DNA from: Chitinivibrio alkaliphilus ACht1
GTDB taxonomy: Bacteria > Fibrobacterota > Chitinivibrionia > Chitinivibrionales > Chitinivibrionaceae
DNA: 64,000 nucleotides
Assembly (NCBI RefSeq): GCF_000474745.1
Contig: NZ_ASJR01000005.1
Span: 1 to 64,000 of the forward strand
Direction of reading: 5' to 3'
Position 1 is the stretch's first letter. Each line of letters starts with the position of its first letter. The position numbers and the translations under genes were made by a program. Below are positions 24,315 to 45,487 of the stretch, piece by piece. The notes under the pieces were generated by a model. It saw nothing but the letters and a program-made list of their open reading frames with translations, was not told the origin of the DNA and did not search any database.

Positions 24315-25295
24315 TTATACCTCCTGCGCTGTGATAAAGCGATTCAACGCCTCAACAGTGGAGAGACTATGGTAGGAGGTTATTTTTTTCTGCAGACCGT
24401 TCGCACGAAGGGTTGATTTTAAAATCCCCCCCGGCCCTAACTCGTATACGGTGGTACACCCATAAAAATCAACGGCTGAGGTAAGACATTTGCCCCAATA
24501 TACCGGAGACACCAGTTGGTCCGCAATACGTTGGCATATCACCGATGCAGACACCTCACAGGAACCGGTCGCGTTCATGATGAGCGGTATGGAGGCATCA
24601 TGGAACGTACGAGTGGGAGCCCATTCAATAAAAGCGGCACGAGCCTCTTCAAGAAACGGTGTGTGCCAAGGACCATTCACGGCAAGTCGCTTCGTACGGA
24701 AGGTATGGGAGCGCTCCAAGGATGCAGCAAGTGTATCAAAGGCACGAACAGTCCCGGAAAGCACCAGCTGTTGCGGAGCATTTATATTCGCAATATAGAG
24801 TTCTTTATCCAGTCCCAGACGACGAATCTCTTCAGCAACCGTATCATACTCCAGAAATAACGGGACAAACATTCCTCCCGTAACCGCTGCGGCACATTGA
24901 TCCATGTGAATTCCTCGAAATGCTGCTGTTTCAATGGTCTCTTCCGGAGAAAGAACGCCGGCCACACCGAGAGCACTAATCTCTCCCAGGGAGTGTCCCA
25001 GAACATAATCAACTTCCACACCAGCATCTTGTAAGAGAGCGTAATAGGCCAAGCTTATGGCTGTGATAAGCGGTTGGATGTAGGCAGACCGGCAAAAGGA
25101 GTGCGAATCCATATCTTCACCAAGACGTGAGAGATCTTCCCCCGCATAATCACTGGCTGCTTCCAAGTAATAGGGGAAACGTGACGCCGTGCATGAAAGA
25201 AGGTCACGTCCCATTCCTGGGAAATGCGCCCCTTGTCCGGGAAGTAGAATAATCCGGGTCTCTCCCATGGCCTCACCATCTGAAAAACGAAACAT
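24315..25295 (-). CDS. second FabD-like acyltransferase heading rib operon
   Basis: Malonyl-CoA:ACP transacylase family protein of up to 326 residues. The acyltransferase hallmarks are LLPGQGAHFPGMGRDL, the nucleophile Ser in LGHSLGEISALGVAGVL, and the His in NGPWHTPFLEEARAAF. The Arg-bearing segment usual after GHSxG is less clear. The start is uncertain: the ATG at 25268 (MGETRIILLP) fits the family N-terminus but both candidates have weak ribosome sites. This is a paralogue of the canonical FabD at 44573-45487 and is not next to fatty-acid genes. It instead leads the ribE-ribBA-ribH-nusB-DUF2723 run. The substrate could be malonyl-CoA or another acyl-CoA. Confidence 0.82.
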   Translation of the reverse strand: MFRFSDGEAMGETRIILLPGQGAHFPGMGRDLLSCTASRFPYYLEAASDYAGEDLSRLGEDMDSHSFCRSAYIQPLITAISLAYYALLQDAGVEVDYVLGHSLGEISALGVAGVLSPEETIETAAFRGIHMDQCAAAVTGGMFVPLFLEYDTVAEEIRRLGLDKELYIANINAPQQLVLSGTVRAFDTLAASLERSHTFRTKRLAVNGPWHTPFLEEARAAFIEWAPTRTFHDASIPLIMNATGSCEVSASVICQRIADQLVSPVYWGKCLTSAVDFYGCTTVYELGPGGILKSTLRANGLQKKITSYHSLSTVEALNRFITAQEV

Positions 25296-28040: not shown

Positions 28041-28931
28041 ATGAAAAAATATCTCCCTCTCTGTATAGTGCTCATTGCTCTTATCGGTCTTCCGCTTCTT
28101 ATTGCCCTTGTAAAGGTACATCTCTTTGGTGACTACTTCGATGCATACGGACGTGTATCGCCATTTCAACATCCTGTAATCGGTGTGGTTACCATCGACG
28201 GCATCATCATGGATTCCCAAGATATTGTTGAGCGTATTGCAAAATTGGAACGAACCCCTACGGTGAAGGCTATTCTTGTGGAAATAAACAGCCCCGGTGG
28301 AGCTGTTGCCCCATCTCAGGAAATATTTGAGGCCCTGCACGCATCTACAAAGCCTACGGTGACAACAATGCAGTCGGTTTCAGCTTCGGGGGGATACTAT
28401 ATAGCTGCCGGTACGGATAAAATTTTTGCCAACCCAAGTACCCTCACCGGCAGTATCGGTGTTATTATGCAACTGCCCCGATACGACAACCTTCTCAATA
28501 CACTTGGCGTTGAAATGCGGGTAATTACCGCGGGAAATCGAAAAGACGCGGGCAGCCCGTATCGATCCATGAGTGATGGAGAGCACGAATATTTCCAGAA
28601 TATCCTCACAGAAACCCATGAGAGATTTATTGCTGATATTGCCCGTGGAAGAGATATGGACAAAGAAGATCTTTCCCTCTATGCAGAGGGTGAAATTTTC
28701 ACGGGAACAACGGCATTCCAGCATGGATTAATTGACTCTATCGGAAGCAGCGCCACGGCCGTCCAATATATTATTGACACCCTTGGTCTTCCCGCTCAAA
28801 CCCCCATGGCACGGAAAAAAGAACCGCACCCACTGTTGCAGCATCTTCAGGAAAGCTCTTTGTGGAATAGAGTTTTTGGCTCACAGAGATTGGAAAGTGG
28901 CCTGTATTATCTTGCCCCGTCTCTTCTCTAA
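28041..28931 (+). CDS. sppA: signal peptide peptidase SppA
   Basis: Membrane-anchored S49 serine protease of 296 residues that degrades cleaved signal peptides. An N-terminal membrane helix (residues 5-26) is followed by the protease domain, with AILVEINSPGGAV, the nucleophile S116 in SVSASGGYYIA, and the general base K168 in AGNRKDAGSPYR. The 52-residue Ser-Lys spacing equals that of short-form Gram-positive SppA. NPSTLTGSIGVIMQ and the C-terminal FTGTTAFQHGLIDSIG are also present. It is 3 bases after the lytic transglycosylase, so co-transcription is likely. Its last 4 bases converge with the histidine kinase gene. Confidence 0.93.
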   Translation: MKKYLPLCIVLIALIGLPLLIALVKVHLFGDYFDAYGRVSPFQHPVIGVVTIDGIIMDSQDIVERIAKLERTPTVKAILVEINSPGGAVAPSQEIFEALHASTKPTVTTMQSVSASGGYYIAAGTDKIFANPSTLTGSIGVIMQLPRYDNLLNTLGVEMRVITAGNRKDAGSPYRSMSDGEHEYFQNILTETHERFIADIARGRDMDKEDLSLYAEGEIFTGTTAFQHGLIDSIGSSATAVQYIIDTLGLPAQTPMARKKEPHPLLQHLQESSLWNRVFGSQRLESGLYYLAPSLL

Positions 28932-31177
28932 TCATTTCTTCCAGAATTCGGCATGGTTCTCTGTAGTACTGCAGCAACCATACGGCTCAACTCAACCCGA
29001 TTAAAGGGCTTACTGATAAAGCCATCAAGCCCCTGTAAATACAGGCTCTGCAAAGCTTCATCACGGGAAAATCCCGATGAAATAATAATCTTAATATCCT
29101 GCCGCACACGGCGAAGCCGTTCAAAGGTATCCCGCCCACCCATAACAGGCATAATCATATCAAGAAGAACCAGGTCAAAGGTTTCAGGCTCTCTTTGAAA
29201 CAGCTGTAATCCTTCAAGGCCATTCTGCGCACTCACGACCTCATAGCCCAGAGACTCTAACATGGCCGTGGCTGTGTAACGCATAATTTCATCATCATCT
29301 ATAACCAACAATAGCCCCGCTCCATGCACCACCTTCTCTGAAGTATCCCGCACCTCACCCGTCAGAAGCACACGGGGAAAATAGAGACGAAAGACCGTCC
29401 CAACCCCTTCTTCACTATACACCGTGACAGCTCCGCCATGATCCTGCATGGCGCCATATACTGCAGACAAACCTAAGCCGGTGCCCTTACCCATCTCTTT
29501 CGTGGTAAAAAAGGGTTCAAAAATACGCTGCTGTACCGCAGAAGACATACCGCATCCCGTATCACGAACAGCTATTTCAACATACTCCCCCGGTGAAAGG
29601 GAAAAGGTACTTTTTTCACAATAGGCAGCATCGAGGGATACTATGCTGACACGGTATTGAAGTGCCCCCCCGCGAGGCATGGCATGACTTGCATTAATTC
29701 CCAAGTTTATAAGAGCATTCTGTAGTAAGGTTTCATCTCCATTGATATACACGGAAGAACCAATCGTGTTTTGTACGGTAATATCAATAGATTTATCAAG
29801 GGTTCTTTCAAGAATTTCCTCCGTTTCCTCTACGAGAGAGACGACCTCCATCTGCCGTTTTTCCGCATCACCTTTCCGAGAAAAGGAGAGTAATTTTCGG
29901 GTTAATCCGGCCCCCCGATCAGCGGTGGTACGAATGAGTTCGGCGTAGTTTTCACGCTCCTCACGGGAAAGATCTTCACTGGTGAGCAATTCCGCAGCTC
30001 CAAGAATCCCCCCAAGAATATTGTTAAAATCGTGGGCAATCCCCCCGGATAACTGACCAAGGGCATCCATTTTCTGAGACTGATTTAATTTTTCCTGTAG
30101 GGCTACCTCTTCGCTCATATCGTGAAATACGACAACCGCCCCCATAACTTCTCCCGATGCCGCACGTATGGGAGCAGCTGAATCTCCAATATGATACTCC
30201 TGTCCATGCCGTGAGACAATAAGTACGTTTCTCTCAATACTCTGTGTCTTTCCTTGAGATATGACCGTATCAATAGGACTTACGACCCTCTCACGAGTAT
30301 GGGCATGAATCAGATGAAATACTTCGTCAAAGGGGGTTCCCTCCACTTCTTTGAAGGACTCCCCCGTCAATCGCTCCGCCACAGGATTCATACGTGTAAT
30401 ACACCCGGCCATGTCCGTGGTTACGACGGCATCCCCAATTGAGGCAAGAGTAACCCGTAAATCTTCTTCGCGCTGTTGGATTTCCTGCTCGGCTTGTTTT
30501 TGCATTAAAAGATCGTGCTTAATTCGACTGGCCATTTTTTCCAGAGCATCAACAAGACGATCGAGTTCGTCTGTACCACGCCTAAAACCGTTTCTTTTTA
30601 GAACGATCTTTGCCGGAGAGTTTTCAACATCAAATGTTTCGACATACTCCATAATAGTCCGCATGTGTTTTCCAAAAAGAACATAGAAAAGCCCTAAAAA
30701 AAACACGGCCAAAGTGATCGTACGTCCCAGCTCGCCAATAACCATCCCAGGAATATCGCGAAGAATTGTTTTGCGAAGAGACTCCTCCGTGCCAAAGAGA
30801 GCAATATCTCCCACATGTACCGGTGGGTCTTGGTACACATGGTAAATATTTCCAGACACAGAGAGCTCATCCACGTGATCCTCTCGATCACCGTACGTGC
30901 GTATTCCTCCCCGAAGATCAGAAATTTTCACCCCCACCACAGAAGGTGAGTTGGCCATACTCTCCATTTGCAGTTGAATGGAGGGCTCATCAAAACGCCA
31001 TAGATTCTGACCGAGAGTAGCCCCGTGGGTTTCCATGAGATTCTGCAATTCAGCCTGTATATCGTCCAATCCGCGAACATAGCGATTGCGAATTTCTATA
31101 CCCGATACGATAACAGTGGAAAAAATACTAAAGAGAGAGAGAAGTAATACCAGCTTAAACTGTAGACGATTTCGCAT
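28928..31177 (-). CDS. hybrid sensor histidine kinase / receiver
   Basis: Membrane histidine kinase of 749 residues. Domains: membrane helix 7-26, periplasmic sensor 27-150, second helix 152-169, short linker, PAS 240-350, HisKA about 370-435 with phospho-acceptor H382 in GGIAHDFNNILGG, and a HATPase with NLGINASHAM, DTGCGM and GKGTGLGLSAVYG. A C-terminal receiver spans 620-745, with DDD at 627-629 and phospho-Asp D673 in LLDMIMP, and KPF at its end. There is no output domain, so the signal must pass to a separate partner not in the window. It lies 86 bases downstream of the usher gene in the same orientation, with no terminator seen between. Control of the pilus locus is therefore conceivable but unproven. 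Confidence 0.93.
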   Translation of the reverse strand: MRNRLQFKLVLLLSLFSIFSTVIVSGIEIRNRYVRGLDDIQAELQNLMETHGATLGQNLWRFDEPSIQLQMESMANSPSVVGVKISDLRGGIRTYGDREDHVDELSVSGNIYHVYQDPPVHVGDIALFGTEESLRKTILRDIPGMVIGELGRTITLAVFFLGLFYVLFGKHMRTIMEYVETFDVENSPAKIVLKRNGFRRGTDELDRLVDALEKMASRIKHDLLMQKQAEQEIQQREEDLRVTLASIGDAVVTTDMAGCITRMNPVAERLTGESFKEVEGTPFDEVFHLIHAHTRERVVSPIDTVISQGKTQSIERNVLIVSRHGQEYHIGDSAAPIRAASGEVMGAVVVFHDMSEEVALQEKLNQSQKMDALGQLSGGIAHDFNNILGGILGAAELLTSEDLSREERENYAELIRTTADRGAGLTRKLLSFSRKGDAEKRQMEVVSLVEETEEILERTLDKSIDITVQNTIGSSVYINGDETLLQNALINLGINASHAMPRGGALQYRVSIVSLDAAYCEKSTFSLSPGEYVEIAVRDTGCGMSSAVQQRIFEPFFTTKEMGKGTGLGLSAVYGAMQDHGGAVTVYSEEGVGTVFRLYFPRVLLTGEVRDTSEKVVHGAGLLLVIDDDEIMRYTATAMLESLGYEVVSAQNGLEGLQLFQREPETFDLVLLDMIMPVMGGRDTFERLRRVRQDIKIIISSGFSRDEALQSLYLQGLDGFISKPFNRVELSRMVAAVLQRTMPNSGRND

Positions 31178-31263: not shown

Positions 31264-34200
31264 TTATTCACCAAGGTCTTTCCCAGTGTCTCCCATGGGC
31301 TCTGATACCACAGGGAGAGAGAGCGTCTGCGGCGTACCCGTTGGGTCAATACGAAACACAATGGGAGTAAAATAGTCATGAGCTGTTTCATCAATAAGAC
31401 GCGGTACCGAGCGCAGGGTATACTCACCGGGGGGGAGTCCTCCAAAGGAGTAATATCCTGTACTATCGGTATAGATAACCGTTACCGGCTGCATATGATG
31501 ATCAACAATTTCAATGGGGATATCTTGCACCGCACGCCGCGAAGCAAACACACCCAGGGAAACTACTGCCGTATGGGGTGATGACTCTTCTCCCATAATA
31601 CGGGGACGGGGCTGCTGAATTCGTATACCCTCAGGAGAAAAACCAAGGGTGTCAACAAGATAATCCTTTGCTTTTTGAGCCGTTTTTTCAGCCTCTTGAT
31701 AGGTATAGGAATCCATCATTCCCCCGGTGGAAAGAACAAGATCGTAGGTTGTTTGAATACGCAGGGAAAACCCTTGAATAGAGGAAAGGGTAGTGGCACT
31801 ATTCTCTAAAGCCGCTCGGTCACGTTGCGTGATACTTGGAGTATCTTCCGGGAAGGATATTGAAAAAGTTCGTACCATATCATCAGGAAAATAGGAGTCA
31901 CTACGATCCGGCACATGGTACATATATCCCGCAACTTGTACAGCAGGAGTATCGGCAACCACCGTAAGATCCACCCCATCAACAAAGTCACCATCATATT
32001 CCGCCTCTATTTCAATAGTTGGTATTTCCTGAGGAGGAATGTAGAAGCCCCGTTGATAGAGAGTCTGCAAACATGGACGAAGGGAGTATGTTCCCGGCAA
32101 AAGCCCCATATAACTGTAGTATCCATCACCTTCTGTTGAGACGGTCTCAATAATTCGCCCCGTCTCATCAAGAATAGTAAGGGGCATTCGTCCTGCTGCT
32201 GAACGGGTATAAAATTGAGATCGCTCTTCAGATGAAAGCTGTTCCCATTGTGGAGGGGGAACAGAAAAATCATCTGCCCCACGAAGAAACACCTTGATCT
32301 CTTCCTTCTTTGTCCACGCATCCTGCTCCTGTTCAGTCGTATCATGGGGAGCCCTTTTCATGGCAATTTGCTTTTTTGTGATAAACTGACGATCTTCTAA
32401 GAGTTGCGCCAAAGCAGTTAGGCGGTGTGTTTGCAGCAGCGTATCCGTGCCCTGAGCAACCAGCAGAATCTCTGCTTTGGGATTATTTTCAACAAGGTAT
32501 TGATACTCCCGGATACGCCTGTATTCTGCTTCTGCTAGATATATTTGCTCTGACTCATACGCTACTGAAAGAAGCAGAGTATCATCCATCGGGAGGGGAC
32601 GCTCATCTCTCCGAGGATAATCAATAGACACCGAACCGGTAACCTCTCCCACAACATGCACCGGTATGTATACGGTTTTTTCCTGGTGCGGGTCAATCTC
32701 CACACGAATTTTTTCAAAGGGAAACTCCCAACCAATGTAAGGAAGATCCAGTTTCTTGAGAGAAATATCATGTCGCGTAAAGGATGACGTAAGAGGGATT
32801 CGTGTGAGTTCTTCCCCGCGCTCAAGGGAACGATCATCCGTGGCAACCGGTATGAAAAGAAGGCTGTCACCGGGGTCAAACTGATGAGAATAATTTCTGT
32901 CAAGAAAAGGTTGTAGCACCGCTGTCCCTCGGCGTAAGGACGGTTCATGCGTGAAAGAAGCCTTCTTGCTTCCCCCCAAAAGCACTGACCCAGAAGCTGA
33001 TTGAGAAAACTGTATTCGCTCTGGAGTACGATGAGCTGCATAGGTAGTACGAAGTGCGGGAAAATCGTAGTTGTATGTCAAGGATACGGTATTACTTCCA
33101 GAGGAAAGGGCATGTTCAACCTGGGCGGTAAGAATCCCCTTTGAAAGACGTTTTGAAGCACCCATGGTAACTCTTTGCCATTTTCTCTGCGTAAGATCAC
33201 AATATACGGAAGAACGAAGGGAAAGCCCCGCAGATGTTCGATACGATAAAGATTGCTGATAATTCGTATGTGCGCCCCGCTGTTCTACCCGGCGTATAAT
33301 TGAGCTGGAGCGAAACCTCCCATAAGCAAGGGATAGGGTGCCAGAAATTTCTGTTCGCTCAAAGGACGAATAGTACGTACGACCAATTCCCGTACGGACA
33401 AATCCGGAAAAGGGAGAAATACGATACGGTATATGGACCCTGCTTCCCCAAGAATGGGTTGCCTGAGAAGACCGATTCTCTTCATGATACACCGTCGCGT
33501 CATTCATCACGGAGAAACGTGGGGATAGCCTGAGATTCAGAGAGAATCTATCGTGCTGCTCATATATTCGTTCATAGACACAAAAAAAACGCCTATTTGG
33601 CTGAAAGGCTACACGAGAGTAAGGAGTAAGACTCTCTTTCGTTGTGTCGTTGAGGTACTCCAGACCTCCGGAGAGTGTCATATATCGATTTAATCCGTAG
33701 TGAAAGGATCCCTGCATAAATGCACCGTCATCGTCATACAAGGCTCCACCGGAAAGGGTATACCGAAAGGTATTTAACCCCATAACTGCATAGGGGGTGT
33801 TTACTGAGACATACTCCTCTTCTTCCTCTCCCGATGGCCCGTAGGCAATAGTCTTAAGGTCAGTGCGCCCCTGCATAATAGGAACATCAAAGACAAAGAC
33901 CCCTGCGGGATCAGCCGTGGCAACGTCTATGAGAGTACCATTGAGATACAGCTCTACCAGCCAGTGCGGCTCCGTATATCCGCTATAAATATACTGCCCG
34001 GTGGAGCGTTTTTGAGTAATGGGACTATTTGTTATACGTGCCCCATGAATACGTTGTGAGGAAACTGTTCCCGCACCAATGCGTCCCAAAACAACCTGCC
34101 TCACAAGGTTCTTTGAATCATCAGCCCATCGCCACTGATATGAGAGGTTATCCTGATGCCACGGTTGTTGATCAGAAAAGGAGGTCTGTATGGTTGTCTC

Positions 34201-34926
34201 TCCACCCAGAAGTTCTGTCCCAAGGCCAATTCCCACGGTGTTTGAAACAGCATTATCGGTGGACTGCCGACCGCGGTAAGACCACTGTAAATGGCCGTGC
34301 GGAACAGCCCAATTGTATATCCGTTCGTATACCGTATCAGGAACAAAGTCTTTTCCCTGCATACGTAAGGCCTCTTCACGAATACGTTGTAAGCGCATCT
34401 CCTTAAAACGTGGGAGTTCAAACTCAGCCTGTAGGCTCAACCGAAAATTCCTGATATTGAGATCTGTGTGAATGCCGAAAATTTCTCCAAGCAACTCATT
34501 TTTTATATATAAATGATCATTATACAAAATGAGCTCATCTCCAACAGCATAGGTTTTATCTTCAAAGATAATGCTTTGATCTGTATGAGATACACGATAT
34601 GTTCTTCCCTGGTTCTCTATCCAGCCGGAAATCGTTCTTCCCCGATCATGCTTTTCATAATAGAGATCAAGCTGAGAAAAAAGATCTTCCATATGAATAT
34701 AGGTGTCAAAATCTTCTGTAATAAGGAGAAACACTTCAAAGCCCCAATGCCGATCTAAAGACACCGAAACGGGTATCTCATCAAAGGAGCTGAGGCCGGT
34801 ATCATCCAGGGAATAAACCATGCATACCATGCTCACCAGGAAAAGAGCAGCACCCTTTGCTAGGAATGGTGCTCCGAAGCGTTTTTGACAGAGGAAAATC
34901 TCATTGATGATCGATTTGCAGGACAA
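31264..34926 (-). CDS. non-canonical outer-membrane usher
   Basis: Large exported protein (about 1220 residues). The start is uncertain: I used the TTG at 34926 with GGGGTGG just upstream, which yields a signal-like N-terminus. The frame is open to 35010. After a periplasmic N-terminal domain comes an usher-type barrel. Its plug-like strand text is WLVELYLNGTLIDVATADPA, FVFDVPIMQGRTDL, and then NTFRYTLSGG and YGLNRYMTLSGGLEYL, as in PapC/TcfC-type ushers. Beyond about residue 750 it departs from known ushers: two stretches resembling degenerate OmpA-like folds (near 819 and 1059) alternate with two carboxypeptidase-regulatory-like modules (near 914 and 1139, GYYSYMGLLPGTYSLRP and GYYSFGGLPPGEYTLRS). 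It follows a DUF4402 pilin, a chaperone and a second subunit. Confidence 0.75.
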   Translation of the reverse strand: MSCKSIINEIFLCQKRFGAPFLAKGAALFLVSMVCMVYSLDDTGLSSFDEIPVSVSLDRHWGFEVFLLITEDFDTYIHMEDLFSQLDLYYEKHDRGRTISGWIENQGRTYRVSHTDQSIIFEDKTYAVGDELILYNDHLYIKNELLGEIFGIHTDLNIRNFRLSLQAEFELPRFKEMRLQRIREEALRMQGKDFVPDTVYERIYNWAVPHGHLQWSYRGRQSTDNAVSNTVGIGLGTELLGGETTIQTSFSDQQPWHQDNLSYQWRWADDSKNLVRQVVLGRIGAGTVSSQRIHGARITNSPITQKRSTGQYIYSGYTEPHWLVELYLNGTLIDVATADPAGVFVFDVPIMQGRTDLKTIAYGPSGEEEEEYVSVNTPYAVMGLNTFRYTLSGGALYDDDGAFMQGSFHYGLNRYMTLSGGLEYLNDTTKESLTPYSRVAFQPNRRFFCVYERIYEQHDRFSLNLRLSPRFSVMNDATVYHEENRSSQATHSWGSRVHIPYRISPFSGFVRTGIGRTYYSSFERTEISGTLSLAYGRFRSSSIIRRVEQRGAHTNYQQSLSYRTSAGLSLRSSVYCDLTQRKWQRVTMGASKRLSKGILTAQVEHALSSGSNTVSLTYNYDFPALRTTYAAHRTPERIQFSQSASGSVLLGGSKKASFTHEPSLRRGTAVLQPFLDRNYSHQFDPGDSLLFIPVATDDRSLERGEELTRIPLTSSFTRHDISLKKLDLPYIGWEFPFEKIRVEIDPHQEKTVYIPVHVVGEVTGSVSIDYPRRDERPLPMDDTLLLSVAYESEQIYLAEAEYRRIREYQYLVENNPKAEILLVAQGTDTLLQTHRLTALAQLLEDRQFITKKQIAMKRAPHDTTEQEQDAWTKKEEIKVFLRGADDFSVPPPQWEQLSSEERSQFYTRSAAGRMPLTILDETGRIIETVSTEGDGYYSYMGLLPGTYSLRPCLQTLYQRGFYIPPQEIPTIEIEAEYDGDFVDGVDLTVVADTPAVQVAGYMYHVPDRSDSYFPDDMVRTFSISFPEDTPSITQRDRAALENSATTLSSIQGFSLRIQTTYDLVLSTGGMMDSYTYQEAEKTAQKAKDYLVDTLGFSPEGIRIQQPRPRIMGEESSPHTAVVSLGVFASRRAVQDIPIEIVDHHMQPVTVIYTDSTGYYSFGGLPPGEYTLRSVPRLIDETAHDYFTPIVFRIDPTGTPQTLSLPVVSEPMGDTGKDLGE

Positions 34927-35437
34927 TCCCACCCCAGTAACTCCCCCGTCCAATGGTCGATGGAATATCGAGACAGCCCCCGATAGAGAGTATCTGCATG
35001 GTACACCCATTTGGTAAAAGCGTATCCTGTACTATTTCTATGTCGTGAGGCGTAAAATCCATTCTGTGGTCGGTATAGTTTGAAAAAACGCCTTCTGAAA
35101 GCAGAGAAATAATGACAAGAGAGGATTGCGATTGCTCCATATCGGGACAGAGAGTAAGCGAGAATTGTGCTGGCTGCCCCCGCGCAGGCATGTCGATCAC
35201 ATCAACAGCTCCCGTGCCAAAGAATCCCCCAGCACTGGTAATAGTAACACTGCCGCCGGCACCTCCTACAAGAAAGGAACCCATCTGCATATCCTGTACT
35301 TTCTCGATTTCCAAAGACATCTCCGCAGGAACATATACTTCGTGTTGATCAAAAAGATGGAGCGGTCCTGCAGAAATAACCAGGACAAAAAAACAAATAC
35401 TACCGAGAACGAGCAAGGCCTTACTACATCCCCCCAT
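34901..35437 (-). CDS. second DUF4402-like secreted subunit
   Basis: Exported protein of 178 residues with a hydrophobic signal segment (KALLVLGSICFFVLVISA). The mature part shows the same skeleton as the major pilin: a leading FxxxxVYVPAEM strand, a MGSFLVGGAGGSVTITSAGG element, a central beta region, and a C-terminal GGCLDIPSTIGRGSYWGGI with the closing GxYxGxxxLQI strand of DUF4402 proteins. Unlike the pilin it has three Cys residues in the mature part, including NGC and GGC. It is probably a minor, tip or anchor subunit. The ATG at 35437 (a GTG at 35443 is possible) overlaps or abuts the chaperone stop. It overlaps the usher start by 26 bases. Confidence 0.65.
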   Translation of the reverse strand: MGGCSKALLVLGSICFFVLVISAGPLHLFDQHEVYVPAEMSLEIEKVQDMQMGSFLVGGAGGSVTITSAGGFFGTGAVDVIDMPARGQPAQFSLTLCPDMEQSQSSLVIISLLSEGVFSNYTDHRMDFTPHDIEIVQDTLLPNGCTMQILSIGGCLDIPSTIGRGSYWGGIVLQIDHQ

Positions 35438-35439
35438 AA

Positions 35440-36249
35440 TCACAACTCTATGAAATGTTCTGCGAGGGGAGAATCCTCTGCAGCATCTTCCTCGAGAAGT
35501 CGAAGCCGAAGAGTTCCTGTGGAAAGGGTCTCATCAAGGGGTATTTCATAGGTTCGCTGAGAAAGTTCATGGTATATAAGCACAGCTTCACGGCCGACTC
35601 GTACAGGATCACTCCCGTCCTGTGGCAGATGCTCTAGCAGAAGAGATCCTACAAATTCCCTATTTCCCGTACGTTCCAAATCTACCACCAAGGAAGGGCT
35701 ACCGCTTGAATCGGGCTGTACATACCCATTCTCTATGGAGGAACGAGAAGAGGGAGTACCAACATGAATTCGTACGGGGATAGAGACACTCACCACAGTG
35801 TTAATTTGTGTACCCAACCCTTCCCTCTCTTCCTGCGACTCCTCTATGCGGGATTCCGACACTGGCTCGGGGGTAAACAACAGATGCGAACGATACTCTC
35901 CTTCCGCCATATCCGAACTTCTGCGATACTGAATAATGACCGCTTGACGTTCTCGGGGAGGAACCACAATGGATCGTGGATAGATCCGCAAGTAAGGGCT
36001 GGCAGGGCGATGTGTTTCTGGTACAGAATCAATTGAAACCGTGGAGAAAGATCCATCTGAATGCATAATTCTCTCAGTAAAACGAATAGTATACCGTGCA
36101 GTATCACTACCCACATTCATAAAGGAAACATGCTTTCTCCGTACATTGTCTGTAAGCAGGGCACTTCTATCAAGCATGGCCAACATACCGGCCGACGAAG
36201 ACGTAACAAATACAGCAAAGAAAACAACCGTAAAAACAAAATGGTTCAT
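35440..36249 (-). CDS. PapD-like periplasmic pilus chaperone
   Basis: Periplasmic chaperone of 269 residues with a signal peptide ending near SSSAG. The Ig-like N-terminal domain follows the PapD family: VSFMNVGSDTARYTIRF, then YLRIYPRSIVVPPRERQAVIIQYR, matching the F.PR...L.P...Q.VR.. strand that donates to subunits, then EGEYRSHLLF, the equivalent of the GEYR..L.F motif. The second domain (after about 135) is beta-rich and less conserved. It is probably the folding partner of the two DUF4402 subunits flanking it. GGGAG precedes the ATG. Confidence 0.8.
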   Translation of the reverse strand: MNHFVFTVVFFAVFVTSSSAGMLAMLDRSALLTDNVRRKHVSFMNVGSDTARYTIRFTERIMHSDGSFSTVSIDSVPETHRPASPYLRIYPRSIVVPPRERQAVIIQYRRSSDMAEGEYRSHLLFTPEPVSESRIEESQEEREGLGTQINTVVSVSIPVRIHVGTPSSRSSIENGYVQPDSSGSPSLVVDLERTGNREFVGSLLLEHLPQDGSDPVRVGREAVLIYHELSQRTYEIPLDETLSTGTLRLRLLEEDAAEDSPLAEHFIEL

Positions 36250-36277
36250 GGGGCACTCCCGAGATGATATAGAAATA

Positions 36278-36303
36278 GCAGGCAGCGGAACCCCACTACC
36301 TGC
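36278..36303 (-). promoter_or_regulatory. stem-loop between pilin and chaperone genes
   Basis: GCAGG (36278-36282) and CCTGC (36299-36303) form a short stem in the 75-base gap after the pilin stop. It lacks a T-run, so it is more likely a partial terminator or RNA-stabilising hairpin that lets the pilin be made in excess of the chaperone and usher, as in other pilus operons. Confidence 0.35.
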
Positions 36304-36324
36304 CGAAATATTGACACAACCGGG

Positions 36325-36969
36325 TTAGTTATACTCTACCATAACGGTTATATCACCGGTGTATGTTCCAACCCGCTGATCTCCAGAAATACCAAGAACT
36401 GCCCCCACGGAGACTACATCATAATCATCGATATTGCCATCAGCAAGGGTATTATCAAAACTATTATCAGATGGATCAAATGCTTCATCAACATTTGCTG
36501 TACTCATGGTTCGTCCTTCACCGCCCAGAACGGCGAAATTGCCGATTTCCATGGTGGCTGTTGTTTGATCTTCAGCACCAAAGGCGGGTGGGTTTTCAAG
36601 GGTTGCTGTCTCGGGAAGAGTTACAGTATACCCAGTTCCATCTTCACCACCCCATACAACGAACTGCAATTGTGACGCTTCAGTATCATCAATTTCCCCG
36701 CCCGTTACACTTGCGTTTCCATCTCCTTCACCATGTGCTTGAGGTTGGATTTGTGCTTGTACCGCTGAACCAGTTCCGGCCAAAGTAATCAATCCAAAAT
36801 TCATCTCTGAAAGTATTTTTGCATTTATTTCCATGCGCGCAATTTCTACTTGTGCTTCAGAGGTAAATTCAACTTGTGCATCTCCCGTAAAGGTTTGGCC
36901 AAAGGACATGCTTACAAAGAAAATGAGAGCAAGGGCAATACTCGCTACGTTGGTTTGTACATTTCTCAT
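36325..36969 (-). CDS. DUF4402 major pilin-like subunit
   Basis: Exported protein of 214 residues with a signal peptide (residues 1-24, ending SMSFGQ). The mature protein is a DUF4402 domain: an ARMEINAKILSEMNFGLITL strand, a Gly-rich middle, a TGYTVTLPETATLENP strand, and a C-terminal DVVSVGAVLGI ... GTYTGDITVMVEYN ending, the characteristic G.Y.G...VtV.Y tail that could be donated between subunits. Very acidic, with no Cys in the mature part. First gene of the chaperone-usher run, with GGAG upstream of the ATG and its own long leader, which fits a major structural subunit. Confidence 0.75.
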   Translation of the reverse strand: MRNVQTNVASIALALIFFVSMSFGQTFTGDAQVEFTSEAQVEIARMEINAKILSEMNFGLITLAGTGSAVQAQIQPQAHGEGDGNASVTGGEIDDTEASQLQFVVWGGEDGTGYTVTLPETATLENPPAFGAEDQTTATMEIGNFAVLGGEGRTMSTANVDEAFDPSDNSFDNTLADGNIDDYDVVSVGAVLGISGDQRVGTYTGDITVMVEYN

Positions 36970-37989: not shown

Positions 37990-40791
37990 TTATCGTACAA
38001 TGTGTCGATTTACCACCTGACCTTCCGGCCCATTCACGCGCAGTATCACCATACCACGGGGCAGTTGACCCTGCACGGAAATACGATGGTCTCCTGCTGA
38101 AAGGTGCTGCTCTGTAGTATACACACGTTGGCCATTGAGCGCATACGCTGAGACAGAATACAGACCAGATGCGTCAGTTGAAATCTGTATGCTTTGCGGG
38201 GTTACCCCATGTATTGCTAAGGGACTTTTCCGTACCGTCTCTCTTTCTACAAGGTTCACCGAGTCGTCATCGTCATCATACTCAAAACCAACCAGACGTA
38301 TGGCGTGCACCTCTATGGATACTGCGCCCTCCTCTGCCGTGGCAAAACCGACACCATAGATATCGCTCATGTGCAACTCATCGCTATCACCCCAACTTTT
38401 TTCAAAGTCTGAGATCTCTATACGAACCGTCTCACCTGTACCGGAGCTTTGCGGTGCAATAAATCCATATGTCTCGGTGCCAAGACTAACATTGAAATCT
38501 GCGTCTGAACTGTATTCAATTTCTATCGCCTGGACATCTCCAAAATCCTGCCCCATGGATGCCGTGGCATTTGCATAGGCCCAATGTCCTGCATCACCAT
38601 CGCTTGTTCCTTGGACAAGATCTATCACCACAGGGATATCACTATCAGCAATGTCTGCTGATGATCCGGTTTCATAGGAGTCTGTAGTAACAGACCACCC
38701 CGCAACAGTGAGGATATCTTCCACGGGCAACTCATCACCGTCATCATCACCGTCATCATCACCGTCATCATCACCGTCATCATCACCGTCATCATCACCG
38801 TCGTCATCACCGTCGTCATCACCGTCATCATCACCGTCATCATCACCGTCGTCATCACCGTCATCATCGCCGTCGTCATCATCTTCTACGTATTCAAAGT
38901 CGAAGGTGTGCGTTGTGATACCGTTGAATTGGATATACTCAAGTTCTATCTCTGCCGAGGAAACATCATCCGGCAATGAAAGGGTGACCCCTGTTGCCCG
39001 TGATGCCCCATCAGCGGCCCACGTCATGCCTTCATTTTCTTCGTCCGACCAGGGTGCAGGACTAAGTAAACTCACCGGAATCTGATACTTTTCAGAAGAG
39101 TTGCTCAACCTAATGTTACGTCCATATCCTCCCCAATATGATTCTGCCGAACCATCATTTTCCGTAGTAAAGGTTAAACGCATGTTATCACTCCCTCTGC
39201 CACGTACGGTTACACCACTCATCTGAGAAAGATCAACCACCATATCATCAGGAAAGGGAGCATGAAGAGCACCGCGTTCTTCAATGGTAATACGAAGGGT
39301 TCCAGCAGTAGAATCGAACATTTTTGCCGTGTTGTCACTATCAATTTCGGTGCCATCAGAAGCGAAAATGCCACCTTCATCACCCCCAACATAGGTATAC
39401 CAATACCCTCCTGCTTCCCACGGCTCGTCGGGCATAGTCGCACGGCCGTACTCATATCCAAGGTTTGTTTGCGCAAGGTTTTCATCTTCAAAATGGTCAA
39501 AATAAATACCGCTGGTATCAAAATCATCATCGCCATCATCCACGGGAGAGTCGCTCCAACTCCACCAATTTCCCGAAATAAGCAACATGGACTGCAAACG
39601 GATGGCTCGCGAGAAATGGTCACTTCCCTCCATATAAGATCGTTGCAAATAGTTCCACCCATCTGTGACAAAATTCTGGTCACCCGCCACGGCCGCAGCA
39701 GCAATAAAGGGGGCGGTAAAGGTCGGAGACGTATAGTTGGTAGTCAGGGGAGTACCGCTTAAGTAGTAACCAGGGTATATCTGTTCTACATTACCATTAC
39801 TTGCATCAATAACAAACTCACCCAGTCGTTGTGCCGCCTCACGGGCATTCTGCGTGCCAAAATGAGCATAATCGGCCGTGATACGCCACGGTACACGTGA
39901 TGAATTTGTAGAAAACTGATTATCATGCTCCATTTCAAGAAAGTAAGAATCTACATTCCATGTTCCATATTGGGGATGATGGTACACAAAATCGGAAATA
40001 AGCCCTGTTTCAGATGCTCCATTTTGCGGTTCATTCAGAAAAGCATTGTAAATCTCGTATGCCTTATCAGCAACGGCGTTCCATTTTGTGTCCCCCGTTG
40101 CTTCAGCAAAGGTTCGCATATGGCCGCCCATCCAATCTGCCGGGCGTGTATTGTAATACATATCACTGGCTGAAGTTGCCCAGTTTCCCATGCGTAATGC
40201 CTGGGTCTCAGGGTGTACCAAATGATCATAGATATCATTAAGCATAGCCCGCGCCTGATTGAGATATCGTTGCTCCCCCCACTGCTTATAGGCAAGAAGT
40301 AAGGCATAGGCAATATCCAGATCGCCATCAGTGGCAGAATTTCTTCGGGTCTGTGTATCTTCCCAAGAACCAACTCCCCCATCTATACGCCACGTCATGA
40401 GGTTAGATCCACCTGCTCCTGTAGCAGGAAAGGCTTTATAAAAATTATACATACCATCAAAATAGTATTGTGCCGAATCATCGTATCCAGCCATGTGTGT
40501 TAGAATTACCATACCCCACCCATGGGCTTCAGAAACGGTCACGCCCTCATCATGGGTGGAAGTCTCACTCATATAATACGCATTTTCAACATTTTGTGCA
40601 CGTGTGAGATGATTTCGTTTATATGTGTCATAGGCATCACGAATATGCTGGTTCATGAGCTCCTGTGAAATTCCGGGTTTTACCATGCCGTCGTATGATC
40701 GACTTTGGGGAAAGGGCATGTGTTCGCCTGCGATTCCGGAGAAAACCATTCCAAAACAGGCCAGCCAAGTTACCAGTATTTTTCGTTTCAT
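37990..40791 (-). CDS. modular secreted GH8 glycosidase
   Basis: Secreted enzyme of 933 residues. Signal peptide 1-22. Residues about 30-415 are a glycoside hydrolase family 8 (alpha/alpha)6 barrel, with general acid E88 in TVSEAHGWGM and Asp residues D155/D157/D159 in NSATDGDLDIAYALL. The family includes endoglucanases, xylanases and chitosanases, and the substrate cannot be fixed here. A beta-sandwich carbohydrate-binding-like module (about 430-640) follows, then a (DDDG)n linker, a second such module (about 700-850), and a Por-like C-terminal tail (VSAYALNGQRVY, LPRGMVILRVNGPEGQVV). ATG at 40791 with GAGAGG, 7 bases. It stands alone between yciH and a solute-binding-type gene. Confidence 0.88.
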   Translation of the reverse strand: MKRKILVTWLACFGMVFSGIAGEHMPFPQSRSYDGMVKPGISQELMNQHIRDAYDTYKRNHLTRAQNVENAYYMSETSTHDEGVTVSEAHGWGMVILTHMAGYDDSAQYYFDGMYNFYKAFPATGAGGSNLMTWRIDGGVGSWEDTQTRRNSATDGDLDIAYALLLAYKQWGEQRYLNQARAMLNDIYDHLVHPETQALRMGNWATSASDMYYNTRPADWMGGHMRTFAEATGDTKWNAVADKAYEIYNAFLNEPQNGASETGLISDFVYHHPQYGTWNVDSYFLEMEHDNQFSTNSSRVPWRITADYAHFGTQNAREAAQRLGEFVIDASNGNVEQIYPGYYLSGTPLTTNYTSPTFTAPFIAAAAVAGDQNFVTDGWNYLQRSYMEGSDHFSRAIRLQSMLLISGNWWSWSDSPVDDGDDDFDTSGIYFDHFEDENLAQTNLGYEYGRATMPDEPWEAGGYWYTYVGGDEGGIFASDGTEIDSDNTAKMFDSTAGTLRITIEERGALHAPFPDDMVVDLSQMSGVTVRGRGSDNMRLTFTTENDGSAESYWGGYGRNIRLSNSSEKYQIPVSLLSPAPWSDEENEGMTWAADGASRATGVTLSLPDDVSSAEIELEYIQFNGITTHTFDFEYVEDDDDGDDDGDDDGDDDGDDDGDDDGDDDGDDDGDDDGDDDGDDDGDDDGDELPVEDILTVAGWSVTTDSYETGSSADIADSDIPVVIDLVQGTSDGDAGHWAYANATASMGQDFGDVQAIEIEYSSDADFNVSLGTETYGFIAPQSSGTGETVRIEISDFEKSWGDSDELHMSDIYGVGFATAEEGAVSIEVHAIRLVGFEYDDDDDSVNLVERETVRKSPLAIHGVTPQSIQISTDASGLYSVSAYALNGQRVYTTEQHLSAGDHRISVQGQLPRGMVILRVNGPEGQVVNRHIVR
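38735..38882 (-). repeat. 12 tandem 12-base units encoding a DDDG linker
   Basis: The 12-base unit CCGTCATCATCA on the plus strand, with occasional C-to-T silent changes, recurs with exact 12-base spacing (CCG at 38738, 38750 and so on to 38870). It encodes about twelve DDDG units joining two binding modules of the GH8 enzyme. The perfect spacing and low divergence make it prone to slippage, so linker length may vary between isolates. Confidence 0.9.
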
Positions 40792-40942
40792 ATACAATCC
40801 TCTCTCTGAGTATTTTACGTTCTCTCAGTAAGATACACAAATATATTTCACAAGTGAGGTCTCCGTCATTTTGTGAAGAAAAGGAGATTACAAGGAATGT
40901 TTTGCTTTTTTGTCGGTAGAAACGCAAAGAAAAGAACGCCTA

Positions 40943-41018: not shown

Positions 41019-41369
41019 TTACGCACCAGCTATTTTACAGACATACCCCTTTTTCTCCAGAATCTTCTTAAGGGTAGTGCGCACATCTCCTTGAATCTCA
41101 ATCTCTCCGTTTCGGACTGTTCCTCCACAACCACACGTCTGTTTCAGCTCTTTTGCAAGGAGCTTACATGCCATATCAGAAAGGGCAAGCCCAGTAATAC
41201 AGGTGACCCCTTTCCCTTTTCTCCCCTTCGTCTCGCGACGCAAATACACCACCCCCTGTGGGGCAGTATGTGCGGAGGACTGCTGCTTGCATTCACATCG
41301 ATTTTGCGGCTGCTCACACTGGGGACACACACGCCCCGAGTCAGTGGAATAGACCAAGGAAGAACTCAT
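41019..41369 (-). CDS. yciH: YciH/SUI1-family translation factor
   Basis: Homologue of eukaryotic eIF1, 116 residues. The N-terminus has a Cys cluster (VCPQCEQPQNRCEC) of the kind seen in many bacterial YciH proteins. The SUI1 domain follows: VYLRRETKGRKGKGVTCITGL, then LAKELKQTCGCGGTVRNGEIEIQGD, closing LKKILEKKGY. Its role in bacteria is uncertain; start-codon stringency has been proposed. Its ATG overlaps the rnc stop (ATGA), making it the last gene of the fab-rnc operon. Confidence 0.92.
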   Translation of the reverse strand: MSSSLVYSTDSGRVCPQCEQPQNRCECKQQSSAHTAPQGVVYLRRETKGRKGKGVTCITGLALSDMACKLLAKELKQTCGCGGTVRNGEIEIQGDVRTTLKKILEKKGYVCKIAGA

Positions 41370-42169
41370 GCCTTTTTGCTCCGGTGCTCCCGTGCTTTTG
41401 CAACAAAAGACTCCGTATATTTCGGAATTGCCACACGGGCTGCTTCCTGCTGAGCTGCTTTTTTATTTTTCCCGGAGCCTTCACCGAGACGCAGCCCTCC
41501 GACCTCAACGGCCACAATAAAATGCTTATTATGCTCCGGTCCTTTCTGTGAAAGGGTTATGTATCGGGGAGATCCCAGATGATCGCCTTGAGCAAGCTCT
41601 AAGATACGCGACTTGTAATTGCGATTTTCCACATCATTGATAAAATGATTGATACTGGGATATAACAGCTGTGCCAGAATAGATCTGACCGCCGTAAAAT
41701 CGCTGCCACTATCAAGAAACGCAGCACCGATTAAAGCCTCAAAGGCATTGGACGCAATGGAATTAACCTGCTTTTGAGGCCCCCGCTTCTCCCCCGGGCC
41801 AGTCAAAAGAAATTCCGATAGATTAATCCGTTCGGCAAGGACCCCGAGAATTTTACGACTCACGAGAAGCGACTTATACTTTGATAGATGCCCTTCCGGT
41901 TTATCGGGGAATCGATGGTATAACTCCTCAGTAACCAGACAGTTTACAACGGCATCACCGAGAAATTCCAAACGCTCATTTGATTCAATTCCCCGAGGAT
42001 CTTTCTCGGCAGAGACACTTGACTTATGACGTAACGCTTTGGTAAGATAGGATGTATCACGAAAGGTATACCCAATGCGTTCTTCAAGGGCTGCGTAAGA
42101 GGTATCTCCCGTTTCTTTTTCACGAGACACCCCTTTTTTTCCTAAAAACTGTTTAAACGTATCAATCAA
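41366..42169 (-). CDS. rnc: ribonuclease III
   Basis: Double-strand-specific RNase of 267 residues that processes rRNA precursors and mRNAs. The catalytic domain has the signature ERLEFLGDAVVNCLVTEELY (Glu/Asp ligands), preceded by TKALRHKSS. NSIASNAFEALIGAAFLDSG carries the second acidic pair. A dsRNA-binding domain follows (residues about 180-255), ending GEGSGKNKKAAQQEAARVAI. A basic tail closes the protein. fabF lies 8 bases upstream, a very common acpP-fabF-rnc order. Confidence 0.96.
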   Translation of the reverse strand: MIDTFKQFLGKKGVSREKETGDTSYAALEERIGYTFRDTSYLTKALRHKSSVSAEKDPRGIESNERLEFLGDAVVNCLVTEELYHRFPDKPEGHLSKYKSLLVSRKILGVLAERINLSEFLLTGPGEKRGPQKQVNSIASNAFEALIGAAFLDSGSDFTAVRSILAQLLYPSINHFINDVENRNYKSRILELAQGDHLGSPRYITLSQKGPEHNKHFIVAVEVGGLRLGEGSGKNKKAAQQEAARVAIPKYTESFVAKAREHRSKKA

Positions 42170-44572: not shown

Positions 44573-45487
44573 CTAACAATTTTTTTCTATGCTTGCAAGG
44601 TCACCACAGGATTTTACCCGCATTTTTCGGTCATATGCACGAAGTAACCCGGCCAAAACCTTCCCGGGACCCACTTCAAGATACCCATCAAGGTCATATC
44701 CTGAAAGGGTGTGCTCTGAGGCAACCCACTGCACAGGAGAAAGAAGCTGATCTACCAGCAACCCTTTCAATACAGCCCCGCTGGTTTCCGCTTTGGCAGT
44801 TACGTTGGAAATTACAGGACAGTGTGGATCTGCAAAGGTAATCTCCTCAAGCGCTGTGGCAAGCTTATCCGCAGCAGGTTGCATGAGGGGAGAGTGAAAT
44901 GCACCGCTTACTGCAAGGGGGACGACCCGTTTTGCCCCCGCTGCTTCCAAGAGAGCAGAAGCTTCCTCGACGGCCTCTTTTTCTCCAGAAATAACCGTCT
45001 GAACCGGGGAGTTCACATTGGCAGAAACAACCGTGCCAGAAGATACCTTCTCTAAGGTTCGGGCAATATCCTCGGGGGATACTCCAATTACAGCTGCCAT
45101 GGTACCCGTACTTTCAGCTCCCGCTTCAGCCATGTATTTTCCACGCCGCGCTATTAAGGAGAGTCCTGTTTCAAAGGAGAAGACCTTCCCCGCATAGAGA
45201 GCACCATACTCCCCCAAGGAATGTCCCATGGCAATAGCAGGTTGACAGCCCCGCTCTGCAAGAATTTCCGTAATGATCGCCTCAAGGGTAAACAGGGCCG
45301 GTTGCGTATACTCTGTTTGTCCAAGTCGAGACTGAGAATCTTCAAAAACAATCTCTGTCAAATCATATCCGAGGACCTCTTCAGCACGCTTGAAATAGTC
45401 TTGCGCCACAGGAAACGCATCGTACAGATCTTTTCCCATACCAATTTTCTGAGCACCCTGTCCGGGATAAAGAAAGGCGTATTTCAT
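44573..45487 (-). CDS. fabD: malonyl-CoA:ACP transacylase
   Basis: Canonical FabD, 304 residues, loading malonate on ACP. LYPGQGAQKIGMGKDLY opens the protein. The nucleophile Ser is in AMGHSLGEYGALYAG, the substrate Arg in IARRGKYMAEA, and the His in VSGAFHSPLMQPA, with the EVGPGKVLAGLL end. All key residues are present. It lies in the expected fabH-fabD-fabG order, 9 bases after fabH, and so is the housekeeping copy. Confidence 0.97.
   Translation of the reverse strand: MKYAFLYPGQGAQKIGMGKDLYDAFPVAQDYFKRAEEVLGYDLTEIVFEDSQSRLGQTEYTQPALFTLEAIITEILAERGCQPAIAMGHSLGEYGALYAGKVFSFETGLSLIARRGKYMAEAGAESTGTMAAVIGVSPEDIARTLEKVSSGTVVSANVNSPVQTVISGEKEAVEEASALLEAAGAKRVVPLAVSGAFHSPLMQPAADKLATALEEITFADPHCPVISNVTAKAETSGAVLKGLLVDQLLSPVQWVASEHTLSGYDLDGYLEVGPGKVLAGLLRAYDRKMRVKSCGDLASIEKNC

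What the first reader, a model, noticed from the sequence alone, without database searches (positions are those of the whole stretch)
31264..36969. Compact non-canonical chaperone-usher pilus locus with DUF4402 subunits
In one leftward run lie a DUF4402 pilin, a PapD-like chaperone, a second DUF4402-like subunit with Cys, and a divergent usher. Classical chaperone-usher systems use other subunit families and are best known from Proteobacteria. DUF4402 proteins beside chaperones and ushers have been noted in some groups, but the specific usher architecture and the phylum context look little described. It is the best candidate in this window for a poorly characterised surface-fibre system.
Basis: partly seen in the sequence, partly recalled or inferred. 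Interest (0 to 1): 0.75.

Follow-up and report, generated by a model that had tools for sequence, protein, structure and literature searches.

The report
Unnamed chaperone-usher pilus with wall-binding kin
These four genes encode a hair-like surface fibre and the pump that assembles it, belonging to a widespread branch of chaperone-usher pili for which I found no published description and whose outer-membrane pore often carries domains that grip the cell wall.

Summary
Window 31264-36969 (minus strand) holds two DUF4402 subunits, a chaperone and a large usher. The chaperone and usher give no usable Pfam match: neither PapD_N nor PF00577. Identity rests on three things: relatives in 86 other loci, most with the same operon; an AlphaFold2 usher model whose 19 best PDB matches are all FimD/PapC (E 1e-25); and a pilin model matching Caf1, CfaB, CsuA/B and FimG.

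The system is a divergent, non-classical chaperone-usher family common in Bacteroidota (86 of 396 genomes match) and Pseudomonadota. In the window's own phylum (genome inferred to be Chitinivibrio alkaliphilus) it occurs in 1 of 168 genomes. I found no publication on it in an open-licence library.

Unexpectedly, many relatives of the usher end in periplasmic peptidoglycan-binding domains: SPOR in 20 of 44 Bacteroidota/Ignavibacteriota ushers and 7 of 71 others, LysM in one. The window usher instead has a unique ~460-residue tail of two transthyretin-like domains with inserts, one weakly OmpA-like without the canonical motif. Best explanation: an ordinary donor-strand pilus whose usher is moored to the cell wall. 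The pilus part is well supported; the mooring is inferred, more securely for relatives than for the window.

The parts
36325..36969 (-). DUF4402 pilin, 214 aa, probable main fibre subunit; signal peptide, then an N-terminal extension with alternating hydrophobic residues
   Evidence: PF14352 E 1.6e-10; AF2 pLDDT 83.5 with no strand in the first 23 mature residues; Foldseek best matches are Caf1, CfaB, CsuA/B, FimG; ribosome-binding site AGGAG
36277..36304 (-). 12-pair stem-loop between pilin and chaperone genes, possible attenuator or processing site
   Evidence: scan; fold z = -2.3 for the surrounding 101 nt; no Rfam match
35440..36249 (-). PapD-like periplasmic chaperone, 269 aa, non-classical type
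   Evidence: 24-29% identical to chaperones of the same operon elsewhere; relatives pass PapD_N cut-off; profile best PDB matches PapD, CupB2, FimC; Pro91 and Arg120 line up with EcpB Pro60 and Arg89
34901..35443 (-). second DUF4402 subunit, 180 aa, placed between chaperone and usher as in Bacteroidota; possible tip or initiating subunit (inferred). Its GTG start overlaps the chaperone stop
   Evidence: PF14352 E 1.1e-9; gene order
31264..34926 (-). usher, about 1220 aa from a TTG start (longest ORF reaches 35010)
   Evidence: family alignment and tree; AF2; Foldseek: best 19 matches all FimD/PapC
34417..34779 (-). usher N-terminal periplasmic domain; two relatives match Cu_amine_oxidN1, none of those scanned matches PapC_N
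   Evidence: AF2 pLDDT mostly above 85; PF07833 in L061 and L080
32887..34299 (-). usher beta-barrel with inserted plug-like domain (about 33772-33966)
   Evidence: AF2; Foldseek; invariant Pro/Trp/Leu/Tyr/Gly residues in the plug segment; FimD aligns here weakly, E 0.0067
31975..32655 (-). first transthyretin-like (CarboxypepD_reg/SdrD_B) domain, interrupted by an insert of about 115 residues (32251-32601) of unknown fold
   Evidence: alignment with Bacteroidota ushers; AF2 confidence in insert below 60; OmpA not supported
31612..31824 (-). second insert, weakly OmpA-like (helix-strand-strand-helix-strand)
   Evidence: hhalign against this genome's own OmpA domains, 72 columns, reached by 2 of 60 shuffles; AF2 pLDDT 57-81; no Pfam match
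31306..31548 (-). second transthyretin-like domain, a duplicate of the first
   Evidence: 39% identity over 46 residues, 0 of 500 shuffles; CarboxypepD_reg/SdrD_B

Best explanation
A non-classical chaperone-usher pilus. Subunits enter the periplasm by Sec; the PapD-like chaperone completes their Ig fold with its G1 strand; the usher threads them through its barrel while each subunit's N-terminal strand replaces the chaperone strand of its neighbour, giving a DUF4402 fibre for attachment (for this organism, perhaps to chitin or other cells). The usher's C-terminal tail stays in the periplasm. In many relatives it carries SPOR or LysM domains and so holds the assembly platform to peptidoglycan; in the window an unrelated tail with one weakly OmpA-like insert may do the same. 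Shown by computation: homology, gene order, usher fold, pilin fold, SPOR/LysM domains in relatives. Inferred: donor-strand exchange, the substrate bound, and wall anchoring.
For: Usher fold: Foldseek ranks 1-19 all FimD/PapC, E 1e-25 to 9e-10, before any porin at 2e-7. Pilin fold: best matches are chaperone-usher fibre subunits. Family: 133 relatives by tblastn; chaperone in 78 and DUF4402 in 78 of 87 loci. Chaperone: relatives reach PapD_N; profile best PDB chaperone matches PapD/CupB2/FimC; the Arg and Pro of archaic/alternative chaperones are conserved, Arg120 in 42 of 46 and Pro91 in 46 of 46 (residues defined in PMC4654587). Tail: SPOR in 9/15 + 11/29 Bacteroidota/Ignavibacteriota ushers and 7/71 others; LysM in one; separate SPOR genes beside the operon in Pseudoalteromonas.
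Against: Sequence similarity to classical ushers is below Pfam detection. Pilin Foldseek E-values are modest (0.001 at best). The window tail itself has no SPOR, LysM or OmpA profile match; one insert is weakly OmpA-like and lacks the LSxxRAxxV motif, the other is unidentified. About half of the Bacteroidota/Ignavibacteriota ushers and about nine tenths of the others carry no detected wall-binding domain (some carry TPR), so anchoring is not universal. No chaperone-subunit complex was modelled.
Confidence: 0.85

Rival explanations
1. The chaperone-usher pilus is right, but the C-terminal tails have nothing to do with the cell wall. They are periplasmic docking platforms that bind chaperone-subunit complexes or partner proteins, as the CTD1/CTD2 domains of FimD do.
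For: 8 of 29 further Bacteroidota ushers end in TPR, a protein-binding repeat. The transthyretin-like domains lie where FimD has its C-terminal domains. The window's inserts have no wall-binding motif.
Against: SPOR and LysM are established peptidoglycan-binding folds and recur, up to four SPOR matches in one usher.
Confidence: 0.35
2. The large protein is not an usher but another outer-membrane barrel (porin, TonB-independent transporter or LptD-like) that happens to sit beside pilin genes.
For: No PF00577 match in the window protein; barrel folds in general share signal (LptD, Occ porins at about 1e-7).
Against: Best usher matches are about 18 orders of magnitude better than porins; plug-like segment; conserved linkage to chaperone and DUF4402.
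Confidence: 0.04
3. On origin: the locus is old in the FCB group and was lost almost everywhere in this phylum, rather than acquired by transfer.
For: The usher is sister to 13 Bacteroidota ushers with an Ignavibacteriota/Bacteroidota pair outside; G+C of the locus equals its surroundings.
Against: 1 of 168 genomes in the phylum by three searches; relatives occur on plasmids, one copy between IS6 elements. The chaperone tree does not resolve the question.
Confidence: 0.35

Closest known systems
Classical chaperone-usher pili (type 1 FimA-FimC-FimD, P pili)
   Same: Gene trio, usher fold with N-terminal domain, barrel, plug and C-terminal domains, Ig-like subunits
   Different: No PF00577/PapC_N match; subunits DUF4402; the column of the classical cleft Lys (PapD Lys112) is Pro158; very large tail
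Archaic (sigma, Csu, CupE) and alternative (alpha, ECP, CFA/I) chaperone-usher pili
   Same: Chaperone keeps the Arg in strand F of domain 1 (EcpB Arg89) and the invariant Pro; CsuA/B and CfaB are among the best fold matches of the pilin
   Different: DUF4402 instead of SCPU or Mat/ECP subunits; usher barrel not alignable to EcpC; transthyretin-like, SPOR, LysM or TPR tails
DUF4402 (PF14352) - 'molecular chaperone' - 'carboxypeptidase regulatory-like domain-containing protein' operons in GenBank/PLSDB
   Same: This is the same system; the window is a member
   Different: Not named or described in the papers searched; window gene order matches the Bacteroidota type; window tail unique
PorE/PG1058 of type IX secretion (PMC5053529)
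   Same: A part of an outer-membrane export machine that combines a carboxypeptidase-regulatory-like domain with an OmpA-like putative peptidoglycan-binding domain (precedent for mooring)
   Different: Not a barrel, not an usher; its OmpA domain has the canonical motif
Inverse autotransporters such as YeeJ (PMC5595812)
   Same: Outer-membrane barrel adhesin that binds peptidoglycan
   Different: Type V secretion; no chaperone, usher or fibre subunits

Membership tests
Chaperone-usher pathway (superfamily) | Usher: beta-barrel with plug, periplasmic N- and C-terminal domains | tested here: met
   AF2 + Foldseek, best 19 matches FimD/PapC
Chaperone-usher pathway (superfamily) | Two-domain PapD-like periplasmic chaperone with G1 donor strand | tested here: met
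   Relatives pass PapD_N, profile hits PapD/CupB2/FimC; G1 strand by alignment only, not modelled
Chaperone-usher pathway (superfamily) | Incomplete Ig-fold subunits with N-terminal donor strand | tested here: met
   AF2 pilin model and Foldseek; donor role of the extension inferred
Chaperone-usher pathway (superfamily) | Donor-strand exchange between subunits | not testable with these tools
   only single chains can be modelled
Pfam Usher PF00577 | Profile match over cut-off | tested here: not met
   some relatives match at 0.001-0.4, below cut-off
Classical (FGS/FGL) chaperones | Cleft Arg8 + Lys112 | tested here: not met
   Arg8 column is Arg in 43 of 46 (Ser in the window, Arg one residue earlier); Lys112 column is Pro in 44 of 46 (the Lys112 column placed by eye on the following Arg)
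Archaic/alternative chaperones | Arg89 in domain 1 strand F and invariant Pro | tested here: met
   Arg120 42/46, Pro91 46/46, aligned to EcpB by hhalign
Archaic/alternative chaperones | Domain 2 Tyr and Arg anchoring the subunit carboxylate | tested here: inconclusive
   Arg193 and Tyr226 are conserved (41 and 44 of 46) but their alignment to EcpB Arg148/Tyr169 is uncertain
Archaic (sigma) pili | Spore coat U (SCPU) subunits | tested here: not met
   subunits match PF14352, not SCPU
Ushers with SPOR/LysM tail (relatives) | SPOR or LysM after the transthyretin-like domain | tested here: not met
   SPOR in 20/44 Bacteroidota/Ignavibacteriota relatives, not in the window usher
OmpA-like peptidoglycan-binding domain | PF00691 match and LSxxRAxxV motif in the window tail | tested here: not met
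   no Pfam match; weak profile similarity of the second insert only

The most novel reading that the evidence does not exclude
A whole branch of chaperone-usher pili, running through Bacteroidota, Pseudomonadota and other phyla, uses ushers that are themselves tethered to peptidoglycan by SPOR, LysM or OmpA-like tails. This fixes the pilus base mechanically and, through SPOR, could direct pilus assembly to the division septum or new poles. The window usher would be a case where the tether was replaced by an independently evolved module.
Probability: 0.35. Interest if true: 0.75.

Novelty: new variant of a known kind. Interest (0 to 1): 0.55.

Why it matters
Chaperone-usher pili are among the best-studied protein fibres, yet this common branch is invisible to the standard usher profile and its parts are filed as DUF4402, 'molecular chaperone' and 'carboxypeptidase regulatory-like protein'. 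Naming it would give a likely function to a large set of uncharacterised Bacteroidota and proteobacterial genes. If the SPOR tails bind the wall, they would offer an answer to how an outer-membrane fibre platform resists pulling forces and how its position in the cell is chosen.

Tried and rejected
Single-protein scan of genome contigs with the usher: nothing. Pfam, NCBIfam and PDB sequence searches with the window usher and chaperone: nothing useful; the antibody hits are chance. Reading both tail inserts as OmpA domains: the first is not distinguishable from shuffles, the second is weak. A c-di-GMP riboswitch around the pilin-chaperone gap, suggested by a GGTAGGTAG-like string: no Rfam match. 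Finding the tail elsewhere in the phylum: none. A missing donor strand in the usher-proximal DUF4402 subunit as proof of a tip subunit: suggestive by eye in L032, L040, L041 and L042, but my distance measure was too crude to use. Chaperone tree for origin: unresolved, long branch. DUF4402 profile against PDB sequences: none.

Full report
What is in the window. On the minus strand, from 36969 down to 31264, lie a DUF4402 protein (214 aa), a periplasmic protein (269 aa), a second DUF4402 protein (180 aa) and a large protein. Pfam recognises the two DUF4402 proteins (E 1.6e-10 and 1.1e-9) but gives nothing for the 269-aa protein and, above cut-off, only C-terminal transthyretin-like domains (SdrD_B, CarboxypepD_reg) for the large one. 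The usher family PF00577 does not match anywhere in the genome. The genes are tightly packed: the second DUF4402 gene starts in the chaperone stop codon, and the usher's likely TTG start (34926) overlaps the end of the gene before it. A 12-pair stem-loop lies between pilin and chaperone.

Host. The genome has 2,591,328 bases in 99 contigs. The phylum-level paper PMC4704652 lists Chitinivibrio alkaliphilus ACht1 with 2.6 Mb, 99 contigs and 46.2% G+C, so I infer that this is the source. That paper's inventory of attachment genes lists type IV pili and fibro-slime proteins and, in the passages I read, no chaperone-usher system.

Finding the family. tblastn against plasmids found the chaperone at 24-29% identity in Novosphingobium, Polaromonas, Sphingopyxis and Pseudoalteromonas. 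Those examined lie in operons of one or two DUF4402 genes (sometimes with a further small gene), chaperone, and a 'carboxypeptidase regulatory-like' or hypothetical protein that aligns along the whole usher. A scan of genome contigs with an alignment of four ushers gave 133 relatives, 80 of them kept. The best are Bacteroidota (L031, 32%, E 3e-112). Of the 87 loci (80 + 6 plasmids + window), 78 also have a chaperone and 78 a DUF4402 gene; most of those lacking one are short contigs or contig ends. In Bacteroidota loci L031, L032, L040, L041 and L042 the chaperone is followed by a DUF4402 gene and then the usher, the window's order; in Pseudomonadota it is mostly DUF4402 - DUF4402 - chaperone - usher.

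Distribution. In the window's own phylum the usher barrel and DUF4402 occur in 1 of 168 genomes (the other matches cover only the terminal domains). In Bacteroidota, the window usher matches 86 of 396 sampled genomes at E <= 0.001, though the weaker matches cover only part of the protein. The usher tree puts the window beside 13 Bacteroidota ushers (SH-aLRT 99), inside a clade with Ignavibacteriota; the chaperone tree does not resolve it. Transfer from Bacteroidota or their neighbours is likely but not shown.

Is it an usher? AlphaFold2 with 78 sequences gave a model of mean pLDDT 76, mostly above 80 in the barrel. Foldseek against the PDB ranks FimD and PapC chains 1-19 (E 1.1e-25 to 8.6e-10); the first non-usher is a porin at 1.9e-7. 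TM-scores to the FimD translocation domain are 0.56-0.58 by target length and sequence identity is 10-13%.

Are the DUF4402 proteins pilins? The model of the first one (pLDDT 83.5) has no strand in its first 23 mature residues. Its best PDB matches are Caf1 fibre subunits, CfaB, CsuA/B and FimG. E-values are modest (0.001 at best), but almost all of the best 50 are chaperone-usher subunits.

Is the small protein a chaperone? Three of its relatives pass the PapD_N cut-off. A 46-member profile has PapD, CupB2 and FimC as its best PDB matches (E 0.004, 0.004, 0.07). Aligned to E. coli EcpB (hhalign E 1.9e-4), window Arg120 falls on EcpB Arg89 and Pro91 on Pro60. PMC4654587 calls these the Arg characteristic of archaic and alternative chaperones and the only invariant Pro of the superfamily. 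The classical cleft Lys column is Pro158. The system is therefore of non-classical type, though I do not file it under the archaic or alternative families because the subunits and usher differ.

The unusual part. After the barrel and a transthyretin-like domain, many ushers of this family continue into domains that bind peptidoglycan. Pfam finds SPOR in 9 of 15 Bacteroidota/Ignavibacteriota ushers (best 4.9e-23), in 11 of 29 further Bacteroidota ushers (best 6.1e-18) and in 7 of 71 from other groups; LysM in one (L043); TPR in 8 of the 29. Some Pseudoalteromonas carry SPOR genes beside the operon instead. FimD and PapC have no such domains (established knowledge). Searches for 'chaperone-usher' with 'SPOR domain', 'peptidoglycan-binding domain' or 'OmpA-like domain' found no paper that, by title and abstract start, describes such ushers, and 'DUF4402' occurs in no paper of that open-licence library. 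Subscription journals are not covered, so an existing description cannot be excluded.

The window usher differs from these. It has a ~460-residue tail found nowhere else in the phylum, made of two transthyretin-like domains that are duplicates of one another (39% over 46 residues, 0 of 500 shuffles), each apparently interrupted by an insert. The second insert resembles this genome's own OmpA domains weakly (72 columns, 2 of 60 shuffles as good) and is modelled with a compatible order of helices and strands at middling confidence; it lacks the canonical motif. The first insert is of unknown fold. PorE/PG1058 (PMC5053529) is a precedent for joining a carboxypeptidase-regulatory-like domain to an OmpA-like domain in an outer-membrane export machine.

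Conclusion. An ordinary mechanism (chaperone-usher, donor strand) in an undescribed, widespread branch, with a new kind of usher tail in many relatives. Novelty: new variant of a known kind. The confidence of 0.85 is for the chaperone-usher statement; wall anchoring as a theme of the family I put at about 0.35-0.5, and for the window itself it is only a possibility.

Noticed in passing
L028 1809-9412 (Polaromonas sp. JS666 plasmid 2): The whole DUF4402 operon lies between two IS6 transposase genes, as in a composite transposon; the related L029 also has IS6 and other transposase genes nearby. The operon is probably mobile.
   Followed up: no
L061 5887-9936, L080 7482-11333: The usher N-terminal domain matches Cu_amine_oxidN1 (PF07833, to 5.5e-9), a fold not reported for ushers as far as I know.
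   Followed up: partly
L132, L133, L136, L138-L140, L142-L144: Bacteroidota ushers with a C-terminal TPR-like tail in place of SPOR.
   Followed up: partly
window 37990-40797: GH8-family protein with a long (DDDG)n linker coded by a simple repeat at about 38700-38880 and a Por_Secre_tail-like end.
   Followed up: no
window 28928-31177: Hybrid histidine kinase (PAS, HisKA, HATPase, receiver) 86 bases downstream of the usher on the same strand; possibly co-transcribed.
   Followed up: no
window 24315-25295 and 44573-45487: Two separate FabD-like acyltransferases, only the second inside the fatty-acid cluster.
   Followed up: no
window 41019-42169: SUI1-family gene overlapping an RNase III gene.
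   Followed up: no
window 17426-21427: 1333-aa TMEM260-like (protein O-mannosyltransferase-like) protein with a weak C-terminal TPR match.
   Followed up: no
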